The notes under the pieces were generated by a model. The model searched no databases and was not told the origin of the DNA. It saw only the letters and a program-made list of their open reading frames with translations. 64,000 nucleotides of DNA from a virus: positions 124,001 through 188,000 of IMG/VR virus record IMGVR_UViG_3300044712_000991. The stretch is one strand, 5' to 3'. The position numbers and the translations under genes are program-made. Of this stretch, positions 4,713 to 19,591 are shown one piece after another. Position 1 is the first letter of the stretch. Every line of letters starts with the position of its first letter.

Positions 4713-5354
4713 TTAGGGAGCCACATCCGAACTGCTCGGTACCCAGACTCCCGCGATCGCGACCAACATGTTCACGATACCCGAGGTATCTGAGTGGCTA
4801 CCAACACCGAGCCCCGCAGCGTATCCGGTGGCGTACCCCTTCTCGTAGTCCGTGGGGACTGGTGGGTCTACGGGAGGCGGATCGACTGGCGGTGGGTCTA
4901 CGGGAGGCGTAACTACCACCGCTTCCTCCAAGACCACATCGTCCACATGCAGAACATCAGATGGTTGGGTACCACCCGCGAAGGCAAACCGCAGACGAGC
5001 ATTCGTGGTCGTACCCACTCCTACGAACTCGAACTGCGAAGCGGTGATCGATGGACCGATAGTCACAAGCATATCGAGCCCTAGAGGAGTGTACGGACTA
5101 GCGTGCTCGTGGACTACCACATTGATCGCCCTCGGAAGTCCTTCGGTTTTGGCCTTAAAGGACAGCCTGTATTTTTTACCGGCCTCGATACGCAGACCGT
5201 ACTGATACAACTGTACGTTCGATCCCGTACCCTTACCGATACGAATAACCGCCTGACCGTTCTCGATCTTGCAGGTGTTGTTGGGGTTGTCGGAGTAGAA
5301 TGACCAACTGGTCAGACCACCATCGAACTGGGGATTCAAGATTTCATTTGCCAC
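4713..5354 (-). CDS. Carbohydrate-binding tail protein with Pro-linker and GYAAGL tail
   Basis: 213 aa. Residues about 1-140 form a CBM4/9-like jelly roll: NILNPQFDGGLTSWSFY-type opening, a middle with YRLSFKAKTEG, and the closing VLHVDDVVLEEA. Then a proline-rich linker (VDPPPVDPPPVDPP, about 150-168) and a C-terminal module with DYEKGYATGYAAGLGVG. The same CBM and C-terminal module end the 913-aa spike at 5404-8145. Probably a virion tip or fibre protein that binds cell-surface glycan; the tail motif may be a trimerisation or attachment element. Confidence 0.7.
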   Translation of the reverse strand: MANEILNPQFDGGLTSWSFYSDNPNNTCKIENGQAVIRIGKGTGSNVQLYQYGLRIEAGKKYRLSFKAKTEGLPRAINVVVHEHASPYTPLGLDMLVTIGPSITASQFEFVGVGTTTNARLRFAFAGGTQPSDVLHVDDVVLEEAVVVTPPVDPPPVDPPPVDPPVPTDYEKGYATGYAAGLGVGSHSDTSGIVNMLVAIAGVWVPSSSDVAP

Positions 5355-5403
5355 GTGCGACCTCCATTGATTATGAACTTGTGTACCTCTTGGCGCTTAG
5401 CGC

Positions 5404-11822: not shown

Positions 11823-12422
11823 CTACTTCACGGCTTTCACGGACTCCACCGTGAACCGCCCGTGCTCGGGACGCCAGTCGCACAGACCGATCTCCCGCCC
11901 TGCGACCTCCACGAACTTCTTGATTGAGGCTTCATCCACGAGGTCGGGCATGAAGGTCACGGTGAACGTGAGCCCCCACCGTTTGAACTCGGGGCGGGTG
12001 CGCATCACGCTCGACTGCCCGATCTTGACAGCCACGCGGGACATGTTCATCCCTTCCGCGTACAGCTTCTTGATGTCCTTCGGACCATCGTAGTCCAGGA
12101 GGTTGTCCTCGTAGATGCCGAGGGCGGACTTCGCGGTCGGTCCCTGTTTTGACCGCTTGGCGGCGTTCACAATCATCGCCTTCAGGACATACCCCGGGAT
12201 GATGATTTGGTTCTTGGTGTTGAGGTACAGGCTAGCGAAGAACTCGATCCGCGCCATCTCCTCGTGGTCGTCATCCGTCTTCTGCTTCTTGCCCGAAACG
12301 GACTTGAGCTCCTTGGATGCCTTGGACAGCGGGTCTTTCAGCGCCACGCCGTTGTGCATGATGAGACTGTCCACACCTTCGATAACGAACTGCAATTTGC
12401 GAAGACCATTTTCGGTGGCCAT
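11823..12422 (-). CDS. Conserved phage protein of unknown function
   Basis: 199 aa from MATENGLRKLQFVIEG (AGGAG 9 bases upstream). I recognise the family pattern: LIMHNG...DPLSKASKELK.V..KKQKTDDDHEEMARIEF.ASLYL...I.IPGYVLKAMIVNAAK, then VGQSSVMRTRPEFKRWGLTFTVTF and GREIGLCDWRPEHGRFTV. It occurs in many phages, often near recombination or capsid genes, and its beta-rich C-terminal part loosely resembles RAMP-type folds. Single-gene operon with its own promoter and terminator, so it is probably made in quantity. Confidence 0.75.
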   Translation of the reverse strand: MATENGLRKLQFVIEGVDSLIMHNGVALKDPLSKASKELKSVSGKKQKTDDDHEEMARIEFFASLYLNTKNQIIIPGYVLKAMIVNAAKRSKQGPTAKSALGIYEDNLLDYDGPKDIKKLYAEGMNMSRVAVKIGQSSVMRTRPEFKRWGLTFTVTFMPDLVDEASIKKFVEVAGREIGLCDWRPEHGRFTVESVKAVK

Positions 12423-12553
12423 GATTTGTTTCTCCTGTATGTGCATGTTGAACTTTGTAGGCAGTCCAACGAGGCCTGTTGATGCTCTACTACTGACATC
12501 TACCTCTCCAATTCACACGCTACCTCACCTCAACCGCGCCTTAAGTGTACCAC
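12423..12553 (-). other. Untranslated leader of the 199-aa protein gene
   Basis: About 120 bases of mRNA leader between the promoter at 12554 and the start at 12422. I see no strong hairpin or small ORF with a good ribosome-binding site. Confidence 0.5.
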
Positions 12554-12582
12554 AAGATACAAAATGAATTCTCGATTGTCAA
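12554..12582 (-). promoter_or_regulatory. Sigma70-type promoter
   Basis: TTGACA, 17 bp, TATCTT on the minus strand. It has a consensus -35 box but lacks the GTTG before the -10 seen in the main family. Confidence 0.7.
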
Positions 12583-12604: not shown

Positions 12605-13005
12605 ATGGGTACCTAATGACCGTACCAGACTCTACCTAACCCATCCGTGACCATCCAGACCCTACCCTGCCGAACCCATTGTACCTAATGACCACACCAG
12701 ACCTCTCCACGACAGACCGAGACTTGCCTCGCCTTGCCGTTCCGTACCGCTCCAGAACAGACCAAAAGTACCTAATGACCGTACCAATGCCCACCAAACC
12801 TTTCCCCTCCCAAACCAAACATGCCTTACCGGAACGACCCTTACCATATTCAAAACGTTTTTACTTAATATCCTTACCAGACCATTACAAAACTTGCCGA
12901 TCCACTCCTATCCAGACCAATCCTCACCGTTTGTACCTAATGACCACACCGAATCCTACCGCGCCTTTCCTTGCCGAACCCAGACCTAACACATCGCTCC
13001 GATCC
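12605..13005. repeat. Non-coding tract with GGNNN pentamer periodicity and four 13-bp repeats
   Basis: Read on the minus strand, GG recurs every 5 bases over long runs (for example GGTGA GGATT GGTCT GGATA), with very little C. Embedded are four identical copies of GGTCATTAGGTAC, at 12609-12621, 12681-12693, 12768-12780 and 12933-12945, plus a degenerate fifth near 12860, at 72-92-base spacing. No gene fits either strand. Possible roles: binding array for an oligomeric RNA- or DNA-binding protein, two-layer G-quadruplexes, or an origin/partition site. On current gene order it would be transcribed as the 3' end of the operon starting at 14749. Confidence 0.8.
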
Positions 13006-13010
13006 CAACC

Positions 13011-13309: not shown

Positions 13310-14119
13310 TCACAGGCGATGCTCCGTAGGGAACTGCGCCTTGATCCTGAATAGATGGGGTTGCCACGAGTACGACCCATCGGGCTCCACATCGAACGCC
13401 ACGGCACCGAAGTGCAGAAGGCCTGAACATCTGCGTCCCCCGTATTTCGACCCCGCTGCTTGGAGCGCAGGGAGGGTCATCGCCACGGCCATCCTGTCCT
13501 TGATGGGGAAGTACGCCGCCCCATGGTAGTGCACGTGCGATCTGCACAGGATGTCCGCCCGAGGAGCTTCACCAGCCACGAACTCGAAGAGATTCCACAT
13601 CAGTTCCTTCATCACGGGCGTGAGCCTCGTGTGGGGCAACGAGGAGTTGCCTACATGGTGTTTGAAGTTGAACTTCAGCCCGTTCACATCCAGACGAACA
13701 ACATCCTCCGCCGTGGCATTGAATGCCTTGGTCATCGTGGACTCGAAGTCCTCCGCATCTCCCACATGGTACCCTGTACCGTAGGCGAAGAAGTGCTGTT
13801 TGGCACGCGCTTGCCGGATGCACACACTCGCAATCTCTGCCTGTTTGAGTCTATCTGTCGTGATCTGCTCGGTTCCACCGCTACGCATACCTTGACCATC
13901 GATGGCATCCCCGTTGACCACGAGAGCATCGATGGGTTGCAGGTCATCCATAGTGACCACATACTTGTCCCACAGTTCGCGCCGGATGTTGTACACCTTG
14001 CGACCACCGAGGGCTTTTCCAGGATCGAACTGCGGTGGGGTGAGCCCCACGATGTGTCCGCAGTGCATGTCGCCAATGACAACGATGCGTTTGGTCTTCC
14101 GTTCTGTCGCTACCGCCAT
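13310..14119 (-). CDS. Calcineurin-like metallophosphoesterase
   Basis: 269 aa. Metal-binding motifs in order: VIGDMHCGH (residues 14-22, the D-x-H of motif 1), ALVVNGDAIDG (about 65-75, GD motif), FAYGTGYHVG (about 111-120, replacing GNH[DE]), and CRSHVHYHG (about 192-200, GHxH-like). Such enzymes hydrolyse phosphate esters including nucleic acids and cyclic or capped nucleotides. Cytoplasmic. The altered third motif (GTGYH instead of GNHD/E) is typical of a phage subgroup. In an operon after an exported protein. Confidence 0.8.
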   Translation of the reverse strand: MAVATERKTKRIVVIGDMHCGHIVGLTPPQFDPGKALGGRKVYNIRRELWDKYVVTMDDLQPIDALVVNGDAIDGQGMRSGGTEQITTDRLKQAEIASVCIRQARAKQHFFAYGTGYHVGDAEDFESTMTKAFNATAEDVVRLDVNGLKFNFKHHVGNSSLPHTRLTPVMKELMWNLFEFVAGEAPRADILCRSHVHYHGAAYFPIKDRMAVAMTLPALQAAGSKYGGRRCSGLLHFGAVAFDVEPDGSYSWQPHLFRIKAQFPTEHRL

Positions 14120-16215: not shown

Positions 16216-18159
16216 TCACTTGAGTGCCATCATCTTCACCGTCGTGCGACATCGTGATGGCCCCCCTGTGCCCGTGCCAAGTTCGAGCACTGCGATGTAC
16301 GTGCCTGTCGTAGGGGCAGTCCATCTGGCGGAGTAGGTTCCCAGAGCATGATGTACACCGTTGATCAGTACAGCCTCTCTGCCGAGGATGTCCACGACCT
16401 TCAGGGTCACGGACGCTCCCTCGGGTACCGCGTACTCGATGGTCGTCTCGGGGTTGAACGGATTGGGGTAGTTCCGCAGAGCAAACTGTGTGGGCTTCTG
16501 CGGGTCCTGTTCCACCGCCGTACCGTTCACGATCTGAAATGTCTTGTCCAACCACCCACCTCCATCGGTGAGTGCCGAGGGATAGGCTGTACTCTGCGAG
16601 TAGCAACCGATGGTCATCGAATACGATCCGTTGTGGGTAATGGTCGGGAAGAAGACCACCGTCCGTGTCTGCCCCGCCGTGTAGGGCTGTAGAGTGGAGT
16701 TCAGTACAATATCGTACGGAAGTTGCTGATCTCGATCCAGATAGATACTCACATACGAGGAGGTCGGGCTCACTGTACCAGGGTATGTCCCGTGCGTAAC
16801 ATCCGCCTCAATCCGCAGTTGGGTACCCGCCTGAATGAGGGCGTTCCCTCCTTCGGACAGGAGTTCGCCTGTCTGATTGTTGTACACCCGCTGCGTGGGC
16901 AGGAAGGGCGTGTTGTGGGTGTACGTGAGGTTCGTGGTCAGACCGGCCGCGATGGTCAGCGACCCCTGCCCCCAGTACTGCTCACCCCACGGAGTGATAC
17001 GGGCGTTGTACACCTTGTACGTGTAAGTCCCCGCAGCAAGTCCCTCGAAGATCGCCGTGGACTTTGCGTTCGCCCACTTGTCCTCCACAAGATCGCCGTT
17101 CGGAGCATAGAGTTTCACATGTGCCGATGGTCCAGCGAGCCCCCACGGGTCTTCCGCACGGAGGAGGATTTCAAGTCGCCCCTCGGTCACCATGGGAGCC
17201 ACGGGATACCGTGCGACCCCCTTGTTCCAGTTGGCGATGAACACGAACGTCCCGTTCGATTGGATGGCGTAGATGTCGTACCCCGTGAGCCCCTGATTAA
17301 GGAGTTCCCACGATGTGCCCCCATTGGTCGATCTATAGGCTCCACCGACAGCCCCCTGAGGGGTGTTCGCCATGTTCCCCGCGTAGAGCACCGAACCGTA
17401 TGCACCGAGGCACTGCACGTACGGGTTGACCACCCCCACGTTTGCCGAGCTCCAGTTCACACGGTTCGTGCATTTGAGAATCCCCATCGGGCCGAGATCG
17501 TTGCTGACGCCCGCGAAGACCGCCGAGCCCGTGGCGAGCATGTCCCACACATACTTCTTGCCGTTGTTTTCCCACAGCATCCAGTGCTGTCCATAGTCGC
17601 GGGAGATGAAGATGCCCCCGTTGTCTCCTCCGAACGTACCGACGTACATGTCCGTCCCCTGCACAACGAGGGAGAAGGCGTTGGTGTTCATCAGTCGCCC
17701 ATTCGAGCCATCGGAGAACAGAGCACCGTTAGAGAACGACCACGTCGCTCCGTTGTTGGTGGACTTCTGCACCCCTCCCGATCCTGCGACAAACAATGAA
17801 CCATTGATCTTGGTAATTGCCCTGACCTGTGTATTGAGCATGGATGTCCACGAAGTCCCGTTGTCCGATGAACGCTTCACGCCATCAGTGTGCATCGCGT
17901 ACACCACACCGTCGATGACCTCCAGACCATGACAGAACTCGTTGCCGGGGGTCTTCTGCCACGCGCCACCCTGGTTTGATGACCGGAAGACCCCACTGTT
18001 GGTCGCCGCGAACACGTAGTCCCCGTTGAAGCCGATGTCGTATGTGTAGGCTGAGGTCAGCCCCGATGTGACGTACTCCCACTGCTGTGCTCTCCCCAGG
18101 GACACTCCGCAGAACAGCAGGAGGATCGAGAGGATGATGCTCAGGTTACGCTTCTTCAT
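16216..18159 (-). CDS. Secreted beta-propeller protein with T9SS type A sorting domain
   Basis: 647 aa from MKKRNLSIILSILLLFCGVS, a signal peptide probably cut near GRAQ. Residues about 25-330 carry BNR/Asp-box-like propeller repeats (GVFRSSNQGGAW, GVKRSSDNGTSW, GVQKSTNNGATW, GAYRSTNGGTSW). A middle part (about 340-430) resembles a carboxypeptidase-regulatory/fibronectin-type beta-sandwich. The last 80 residues are a type IX secretion sorting signal: LRNYPNPFNPETTIEYAVPE, VTLKVVDILGREAVLI, then GTYSARWTAPTTGTYIAVLE. In FCB bacteria this sends proteins through the outer membrane to the surface. Own promoter and terminator. Very unusual in a phage; a moron/lysogenic-conversion gene is my reading. 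Confidence 0.8.
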   Translation of the reverse strand: MKKRNLSIILSILLLFCGVSLGRAQQWEYVTSGLTSAYTYDIGFNGDYVFAATNSGVFRSSNQGGAWQKTPGNEFCHGLEVIDGVVYAMHTDGVKRSSDNGTSWTSMLNTQVRAITKINGSLFVAGSGGVQKSTNNGATWSFSNGALFSDGSNGRLMNTNAFSLVVQGTDMYVGTFGGDNGGIFISRDYGQHWMLWENNGKKYVWDMLATGSAVFAGVSNDLGPMGILKCTNRVNWSSANVGVVNPYVQCLGAYGSVLYAGNMANTPQGAVGGAYRSTNGGTSWELLNQGLTGYDIYAIQSNGTFVFIANWNKGVARYPVAPMVTEGRLEILLRAEDPWGLAGPSAHVKLYAPNGDLVEDKWANAKSTAIFEGLAAGTYTYKVYNARITPWGEQYWGQGSLTIAAGLTTNLTYTHNTPFLPTQRVYNNQTGELLSEGGNALIQAGTQLRIEADVTHGTYPGTVSPTSSYVSIYLDRDQQLPYDIVLNSTLQPYTAGQTRTVVFFPTITHNGSYSMTIGCYSQSTAYPSALTDGGGWLDKTFQIVNGTAVEQDPQKPTQFALRNYPNPFNPETTIEYAVPEGASVTLKVVDILGREAVLINGVHHALGTYSARWTAPTTGTYIAVLELGTGTGGPSRCRTTVKMMALK

Positions 18160-18205
18160 TGATGTATCTCCTTGTGGATGATGGTACCCGCTTGAACTTG
18201 GTTGC

Positions 18206-18234
18206 AATATACATACAGAAAATCGAAAAGTCAA
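18206..18234 (-). promoter_or_regulatory. Sigma70-type promoter
   Basis: TTGACT, 17 bp, TATATT, about 45 bases before the start of the T9SS cargo gene, between it and the helicase stop. Confidence 0.8.
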
Positions 18235-18241
18235 ATCGTGC

Positions 18242-19591
18242 TCACTGCGGAAAGCCACACCTATCGTGGAATTCCTGGACTCGCTCATCGAAGATGATGT
18301 CCTCGAACACCAACGGGCGGCTCAGTCGTAGACCGGCCATGGTGGTGCACCTGCTGAGAGCCACATAGACCTGTCCGTGAGCGAACGCACCCTTACCGAA
18401 GTCCACGATCACCCTCTCGAAGGTCTTGCCCTGCGCCTTATGGATGGTCACCGCCCACCCGAGTTTGATGGGCAACTGGGTGAAACTCCCCACGGAGGTC
18501 GCCCTCAGATGTCGGCCATCCATGGTGTACGCGTACTTGTCCCACTTCATGCTCTCCACCTGCACAACAGAGCCCTCGATGTCCACCCCAACCCAACTCT
18601 GTCCCAACTCCACGACCGTACCGATACTGCCGTTCACGAACGCCCCTCCGGGGTCGTTGCGTACGAGCATCACCTGCGCACCCACGCGAAGCTTCAGGAA
18701 CTCATCCGTAGGATGCTGCTTGTTCTCGTAGAACTGCCCACTGATGGTCGCTCTGTACAGGCGCTCGGGCATCGGGAGTCTGCGCAGTTGCTGGGTGTTG
18801 ATGGACTCCGCGATGCTGTTTGTGGCGGTGAGCATGATGGGCTCTGCCGCGACCCCTGGAGGAAACTGCGCATCATTCCAGTCCACTTTGAGACTGCACC
18901 GCCGATTCAGCAGATCAATGTCCTCCTGCTCAACCTGCCGATTGCGGATACGGTTCAGAATCTCCAGGAACTCGGGGTCGTTCTGTTGCCGGAAGGCCGT
19001 GGTGAGCATCGCGGCCTGAAACGGGGTGTCCCGCACACAGTTCGCGTCGAAGAAGAACGGGGAGGCATAACGCTCTTCCAAGAACTTCTGTGCCACCCCC
19101 TTCACCACGGGCGGAAGTTGGCAGAGGTCTCCGAAGACAATGAGTTGCACCCCACCGAACTGCTTGTCGGGCTCATCGCGATGCATGCGCAGACTCTTGT
19201 CTATGCAGTCCAGGACATCCGCCCTGACCATACTGATCTCATCGATGATGAGCGTGTCGAGTTCCTCCATCTTCTCCCGTAGAGAGTAGTGGTACTGCAC
19301 ATCCGCCTCGGGATCGAGCACCTCCTGCACGGGGAATCTGAAGAAGGAGTGGATGGTCGCGCCCCCGACGTTCAGCGCCGCGACCCCCGTGGGAGCCACG
19401 ACAGCCGTGACCCGCGTACTCAGCACTTCCTCCAACAAGTGACGGAGAAGCGTGGACTTGCCCGTACCCGCGTTGCCCGTGACAAACACATTCGGGAAGT
19501 CCTCCCTCTCCACGAGCTGGATGACCTCCTGGTACTCGGGGGTGATGATGATGTTCGTGGGTTTCTCCATTTCCATTTCAACGGTGGACAT
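18242..19591 (-). CDS. Pif1/Dda-like SF1B DNA helicase
   Basis: 449 aa. Walker A GNAGTGKSTLLRH (about 39-51), Walker B LIIDEISMV (about 113-121), motif III VFGDLCQLPPV (about 151-161), motif with TTAFRQ (about 197-202), and the C-terminal GWAVTIHKAQGKTFERVIVD and VYVALSRCTTMAGL (motifs V and VI). A 5'-3' helicase that would serve phage DNA replication and recombination. Last gene of the operon from 22787; it could start at either of several nearby Met codons. Confidence 0.9.
   Translation of the reverse strand: MSTVEMEMEKPTNIIITPEYQEVIQLVEREDFPNVFVTGNAGTGKSTLLRHLLEEVLSTRVTAVVAPTGVAALNVGGATIHSFFRFPVQEVLDPEADVQYHYSLREKMEELDTLIIDEISMVRADVLDCIDKSLRMHRDEPDKQFGGVQLIVFGDLCQLPPVVKGVAQKFLEERYASPFFFDANCVRDTPFQAAMLTTAFRQQNDPEFLEILNRIRNRQVEQEDIDLLNRRCSLKVDWNDAQFPPGVAAEPIMLTATNSIAESINTQQLRRLPMPERLYRATISGQFYENKQHPTDEFLKLRVGAQVMLVRNDPGGAFVNGSIGTVVELGQSWVGVDIEGSVVQVESMKWDKYAYTMDGRHLRATSVGSFTQLPIKLGWAVTIHKAQGKTFERVIVDFGKGAFAHGQVYVALSRCTTMAGLRLSRPLVFEDIIFDERVQEFHDRCGFPQ

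What the first reader, a model, noticed from the sequence alone, without database searches (positions are those of the whole stretch)
12605..13005. GGNNN pentamer tract with four copies of GGTCATTAGGTAC
About 400 non-coding bases in which GG recurs every fifth base on the minus strand, with C nearly absent, and an exact 13-mer repeated at 72-92-base spacing. No feature type I know has this form. Period-5 purine repeats recall RNA targets of ring proteins (TRAP binds (G/U)AGNN repeats); GGN3 runs could form two-layer G-quadruplexes; spaced 13-mers recall iterons.
Basis: partly seen in the sequence, partly recalled or inferred. Interest (0 to 1): 0.78.

Follow-up and report, generated by a model that had tools for sequence, protein, structure and literature searches.

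The report
Phage VIPR guide-RNA array beside vipr
This odd GG-every-five-bases stretch in a large phage genome is almost certainly a row of five guide RNAs for VIPR, a recently described CRISPR-like RNA-guided weapon that phages use against rival phages; it is a new member of that known kind, with a compact array whose separators have no hairpin.

Summary
On the minus strand, window 13010-12609 is five tracts of 11-14 pentamers (GG-N-NN). Four end in the exact 13-mer GGTCATTAGGTAC and one in a degenerate copy. The period is far beyond chance and unique in this 194-kb phage record. The tract lies ~190 nt upstream of a 199-aa gene (11823-12422, phrog_4652).

AlphaFold plus Foldseek put that protein in the Cas7/Csm3 RAMP fold. 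Phages encoding relatives carry the same kind of GG-pentamer tracts, gene-strand only. This is exactly the anatomy of VIPR (Viral Interference Programmable Repeat; PMC13142463, 2026 preprint): a small RAMP protein plus guide RNAs of 9-16 YNNGG repeats and a 3' tail, whose NN pairs read DNA with one skipped base.

So the tract is a vrRNA array, not TRAP targets, iterons or G-quadruplexes. It departs from the typed example in three ways: the base after GG is 'not G' rather than strictly pyrimidine; the separators are short phase-breaks without a strong hairpin (also in four other lineages here, probably the preprint's 'staggered arrays'); and no phrog_5926 accessory gene was found. Transcription and binding are inferred by homology. 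No natural target was found for the guides searched.

The parts
12946..13010 (-). vrRNA 1 guide tract, 13 pentamers (GGTTG ... GGTGT)
   Evidence: 5-nt phase parse
12933..12945 (-). tail/separator of vrRNA 1, GGTCATTAGGTAC (phase-break GG-N6-GG)
   Evidence: exact repeat
12874..12928 (-). vrRNA 2 guide tract, 11 pentamers
12861..12873 (-). degenerate tail of vrRNA 2, GGATATTAAGTAA
12781..12845 (-). vrRNA 3 guide tract, 13 pentamers
12768..12780 (-). tail of vrRNA 3, GGTCATTAGGTAC
12694..12763 (-). vrRNA 4 guide tract, 14 pentamers
12681..12693 (-). tail of vrRNA 4, GGTCATTAGGTAC
12622..12676 (-). vrRNA 5 guide tract, 11 pentamers
12609..12621 (-). tail of vrRNA 5, GGTCATTAGGTAC
12554..12582 (-). 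promoter-like site TTGACA-17-TATCTT between the array and vipr
   Evidence: shuffles give about 1 such site per region, so weak
12501..12540 (-). short degenerate GG-pentamer stretch in the vipr leader (possible decayed vrRNA or self-binding leader)
   Evidence: seen by eye; not tested statistically
11823..12422 (-). vipr gene: 199-aa RAMP (Cas7/Csm3-fold) protein, phrog_4652
   Evidence: PHROG hit; AlphaFold pLDDT 92.2; all 50 listed PDB matches are CRISPR effector subunits of the Csm/Cmr/type III-D/type VII group

Best explanation
The tract is the guide-RNA (vrRNA) array of a phage VIPR system. Read on the minus strand it encodes five guides of 11-14 GG-N-NN pentamers, each closed by a 3' tail that is the 13-mer (four exact, one degenerate). 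The gene just downstream (11823-12422) encodes the Vipr RAMP protein, subunits of which should line up along the pentamers as Cas7/Csm3 do on crRNA, one subunit per pentamer. The two variable bases of each pentamer together spell a gapped DNA address, read with one skipped base per pair, and the complex silences transcription of a competing phage or satellite in the same host. Shown here: the periodicity, the array anatomy, the RAMP fold (predicted), and the strand-specific association of such tracts with this protein family. Taken from the preprint: RNA production, co-purification with Vipr, the 1-nt-skip code, repression. Inferred for this phage: expression, processing, the targets.
For: Period-5 GG, 0/500 shuffles, unique in the record. 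Protein is phrog_4652, E=1.5e-45; structure pLDDT 92.2; Foldseek best hits Csm3/Cas7 (E 1.2e-6, prob 1.00). Of 80 IMG/VR loci found only by the protein, the best in-phase GG count in 12 pentamers is 7 or more in 78 loci on the gene strand but in 4 on the other strand. Same arrays beside the gene in annotated phages: Felixounavirus VSe11, Pseudomonas phages LESphi2 and Medea1, Mycobacterium LittleE, Gordonia MakoManhole. Nearest relative G001 (vipr 63% identical) has arrays on both sides of vipr with different guides. The preprint's anatomy matches point by point.
Against: Third base is pyrimidine in only 45 of 62 pentamers (T33, A16, C12, G1), and the second base is T in 11, looser than strict GGY. 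The tail has no strong hairpin or pseudoknot. No phrog_5926 accessory (vap-like) gene in the record. No natural target found for the guides, though those searches were exact-core and limited.
Confidence: 0.94

Rival explanations
1. RNA target of a TRAP-like ring protein: the (G/U)AGNN-like repeats wrap around an 11-mer ring and regulate the downstream gene.
For: Period-5 purine repeat, 11-14 units per tract, upstream of a gene on the same strand.
Against: No TrpBP (PF02081) homologue in the record, while the control B. subtilis rings; tracts in relatives lie upstream, downstream or far from the gene, not only in leaders; the neighbour is a RAMP.
Confidence: 0.02
2. Replication origin with spaced iterons bound by a phage initiator.
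For: Exact 13-mer repeated at 72-93 nt spacing.
Against: Strand-specific guide-like tracts linked to a RAMP gene in 78 of 80 loci; GC skew does not switch at the tract; the 13-mer with a tract is absent from all relatives searched and replaced by hairpins in the nearest one.
Confidence: 0.01
3. A decayed VIPR array: guides and protein no longer work and persist by drift. (A sub-case of the best explanation: same identity, no present function; its confidence overlaps that of the best explanation.)
For: Some pentamers lost GG (14 of 62 lack G at position 2); vrRNA 2 has a degenerate tail; no target found.
Against: The vipr ORF is intact with the family's conserved residues; four tails are letter-perfect; the first base of the pentamer is G in 61 of 62; the 63%-identical relative G001 also uses G[G/T] pentamers, so loss of GG can be normal here.
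Confidence: 0.1

Closest known systems
VIPR type II (Escherichia phage SUSP1 / P. fulva prophage clades), PMC13142463
   Same: Phage-encoded small RAMP protein; intergenic arrays of 9-16 YNNGG repeats each followed by an invariant 3' tail; guides hypervariable.
   Different: Here the repeat is G[G/T]H-NN rather than strict GGY-NN; the tail is a short 13-mer without strong hairpin or pseudoknot; units follow each other almost without spacer; no phrog_5926 accessory gene found; Vipr is about 30% identical to the Felixounavirus VSe11 homologue.
VIPR 'staggered arrays with overlapping vrRNAs' (mentioned in PMC13142463; figure S18 not readable here)
   Same: Probably this architecture: compact arrays with a phase break instead of a structured spacer. 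Four other lineages in my sample (L073/L078, L079, L083, L092/L094/L095) have short GG-to-GG phase breaks at about 59-97-nt spacing.
   Different: The equivalence is my inference; whether the RNAs overlap in this phage is unknown.
Class 1 CRISPR RAMP Csm3/Cas7
   Same: Fold, and the expected mode of lining up on a guide RNA.
   Different: Single small protein, 5-nt period instead of 6, no CRISPR repeats; sequence identity about 10-14%.

Membership tests
VIPR system (PMC13142463) | Vipr: small (~20 kD) phage RAMP protein | tested here: met
   199 aa, AlphaFold pLDDT 92.2, Foldseek top hits all class 1 CRISPR RAMP subunits, chiefly Csm3
VIPR system (PMC13142463) | vrRNA with 9-16 tandem pentamer repeats | tested here: met
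   11, 11, 13, 13 and 14 pentamers; first base G in 61/62, second base G in 48/62
VIPR system (PMC13142463) | GGY (pyrimidine third base) or a related consensus | tested here: inconclusive
   T33 A16 C12 G1: 'not G' rather than Y; the preprint allows related consensuses; sample-wide Y is 86%
VIPR system (PMC13142463) | Invariant 3' tail after each repeat tract | tested here: met
   GGTCATTAGGTAC after 4 of 5 tracts, degenerate after one; array begins with repeats and ends with a tail
VIPR system (PMC13142463) | Structured (hairpin/pseudoknot) tail as in the SUSP1 clade (defines that clade, not all VIPR) | tested here: not met
   Tail fold only -3.4 kcal/mol, z -0.73; tail of relative G001 -14.1, z -5.9
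VIPR system (PMC13142463) | Accessory vap gene next to vipr (typical, not universal) | tested here: inconclusive
   phrog_5926 absent from the record; other vap families could not be searched
VIPR system (PMC13142463) | vrRNA expressed and bound by Vipr | not testable with these tools
   needs small-RNA sequencing and pull-down
VIPR system (PMC13142463) | NN pairs match a DNA target with 1-nt skip | tested here: inconclusive
   No target for these guides; in a related pair, a guide of L106 matches a gene of L112 at 21/24 with the skip at wobble positions
TRAP (trp RNA-binding attenuation protein) target | TRAP protein present | tested here: not met
   PF02081 absent from the record

The most novel reading that the evidence does not exclude
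A VIPR subtype with a minimal, essentially unstructured phase-break tail (GGTRY-GG-N6-GG) and a relaxed G[G/T]H-NN code, in which one long RNA may carry several guides in tandem without processing hairpins, and which works without a phrog_5926 partner.
Probability: 0.3. Interest if true: 0.6.

Novelty: new member of a known kind. Interest (0 to 1): 0.5.

Why it matters
It places VIPR in a ~194-kb uncultivated phage, probably of a Bacteroidota-like host, and gives five readable guides whose predicted addresses could name its rivals. It also shows that the family is easy to find (at least 488 IMG/VR contigs encode relatives in one capped scan) and that tails differ completely between phages whose Vipr proteins are 63% identical, so tail recognition evolves fast.

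Tried and rejected
Exact search for the 13-mer with context in IMG/VR: four single chance matches without tracts. Tandem Repeats Finder and Rfam: nothing. Pfam and NCBIfam on Vipr: nothing. DNA similarity in phage records: nothing. TRAP: no protein. Self-targeting of G000 or targeting of G001 by the guides: no better than shuffled guides. Targets for a core of vrRNA 4 (0 hits), vrRNA 1 (9 genome hits, about the chance number, at most 22/26 on extension) and vrRNA 5 (49 hits, at most 19/22): none convincing; all five guides against 1.45 Mb of fetched sequence: close to shuffled guides (the best scores of vrRNA 1 and 5 come from loci fetched by their own cores). Metallophosphoesterase (13310-14119) as a vap: G001 also has one upstream of its array, but similarity is weak (blastp 27%, E 2e-4) and the contig of a closer homologue that was searched has no vipr; left open.

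Full report
Observation. The window is bases 124001-188000 of a 194,278-base virus record, a tailed phage with nearly all genes on the minus strand. On that strand the tract is strictly periodic: GG pairs at distances 5, 10, 15, 20, 25 and 30 exceed all 500 dinucleotide-preserving shuffles, and no other place in the record comes near it. The 13-mer GGTCATTAGGTAC occurs four times, only here, plus one degenerate copy. Parsed in frame, 13010-12609 is five tracts of 13, 11, 13, 14 and 11 pentamers, each followed by the 13-mer or its degenerate copy; the array begins with repeats and ends with a 13-mer, so the 13-mer is best read as a 3' tail. Base 1 is G in 61 of 62 pentamers, base 2 mostly G, base 3 T/A/C (G once), bases 4-5 free.

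Surroundings. About 190 nt downstream of the array begins a 199-aa gene, phrog_4652, unknown function, with no Pfam or NCBIfam match. One promoter-like site lies between the two, no more than chance would give.

The association. The protein led to a distant contig (L018, 41% identity) that carries dense GG-pentamer arrays directly behind its copy of the gene. Annotated phages with the gene show the same: LESphi2, Felixounavirus VSe11, LittleE, MakoManhole, Medea1. A profile scan of IMG/VR returned at least 488 relatives; of the 80 loci kept, 78 have at least 7 in-phase GG among 12 pentamers on the gene strand, against 4 on the opposite strand. Both strands of the same DNA are compared, so G+C content alone would not predict this, though a G-rich coding strand contributes a little. 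The loci were chosen by protein alone.

The protein. A 44-row alignment gave an AlphaFold model with mean pLDDT 92.2. Foldseek against the PDB lists subunits of Csm, Cmr, type III-D and type VII CRISPR effector complexes throughout its top 50, chiefly Csm3 (E 1.2e-6, probability 1.00, TM about 0.5, identity about 13%). It is a RAMP protein.

What it is. A 2026 preprint (PMC13142463) describes VIPR: a phage RAMP protein (Vipr), usually an accessory gene (vap), and vrRNAs of 9-16 YNNGG repeats plus a tail, in intergenic regions flanking vipr; NN pairs read double-stranded DNA with a one-base skip, and natural targets are satellites and prophages. The present locus matches in the features that define the system and could be tested. 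I file it as a VIPR system with confidence 0.94.

How it differs. First, the third base is 'not G' rather than Y; the fraction of Y varies between loci. Second, the tail: in the nearest relative G001 (Vipr 63% identical) tails are strong hairpins (-14.1 kcal/mol, z -5.9), while here the tail folds no better than shuffles (-3.4, z -0.73). Four other lineages in the sample have similar short phase-breaks: GGACTTTAGG in L083, GGATTTCATGG in L079, GGAAATTTTGG in L092, GGAAGTGTCGG in L073. These are probably the preprint's 'staggered arrays', whose figure I could not read. Third, no phrog_5926 gene, which accompanies vipr in the annotated phages, is in G000 or G001.

Mechanism, with status. Transcription of the array: inferred. 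Vipr subunits along the pentamers, one each: inferred from fold and period. One-base-skip reading: published, with one supporting case here: a guide of L106 matches an endonuclease gene of L112 at 21 of 24 guide bases with skips at codon third positions, while L106's own copy (76% identical protein) does not match; my rough estimate is about 0.05 such matches by chance in that search, so this is suggestive, not proof. Target of this phage's guides: not found. Repression of rivals: published for others, inferred here.

Verdict. A real, striking feature; not a new kind, since VIPR was described in 2026, but a new member with a compact array form.

Noticed in passing
L018/G003: L060 (G003 108500-114500) and L061 (G003 148500-154156): Further vrRNA-like arrays about 54 and 94 kb from the record's only vipr gene, on the other strand; those at 151 kb share the tail (GGCAGGGTTCCC) of the vipr-side arrays. 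They look like orphan arrays acting in trans.
   Followed up: partly
L053:2978-3025; L055:5188-5246 and 5330-5395: Separators of vrRNA arrays in actinophages resemble tRNA acceptor/T-arm minihelices (GTTCGA loop closed by an acceptor-like stem), suggesting processing by host tRNA enzymes; single-sequence folds are suggestive only.
   Followed up: partly
L106:3313 and L112:3697-3732: A guide of one VIPR phage matches, with one-base skips at wobble positions, the endonuclease gene beside the vipr of another (21/24), but not its own 76%-identical copy.
   Followed up: partly
window 12501-12540 (-): Short degenerate GG-pentamer stretch in the vipr leader; might be a decayed vrRNA or a site where Vipr binds its own mRNA.
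   Followed up: no
window 16216-18288 (-): Phage protein with a C-terminal secretion sorting domain (Por_Secre_tail, E 5e-5, below the Pfam cut-off) and BNR repeats, hinting at a Bacteroidota-like host.
   Followed up: no
L076:3058-3875: Arrays in which the base after GG is a pyrimidine in only 14% of pentamers: a strongly shifted repeat consensus.
   Followed up: no
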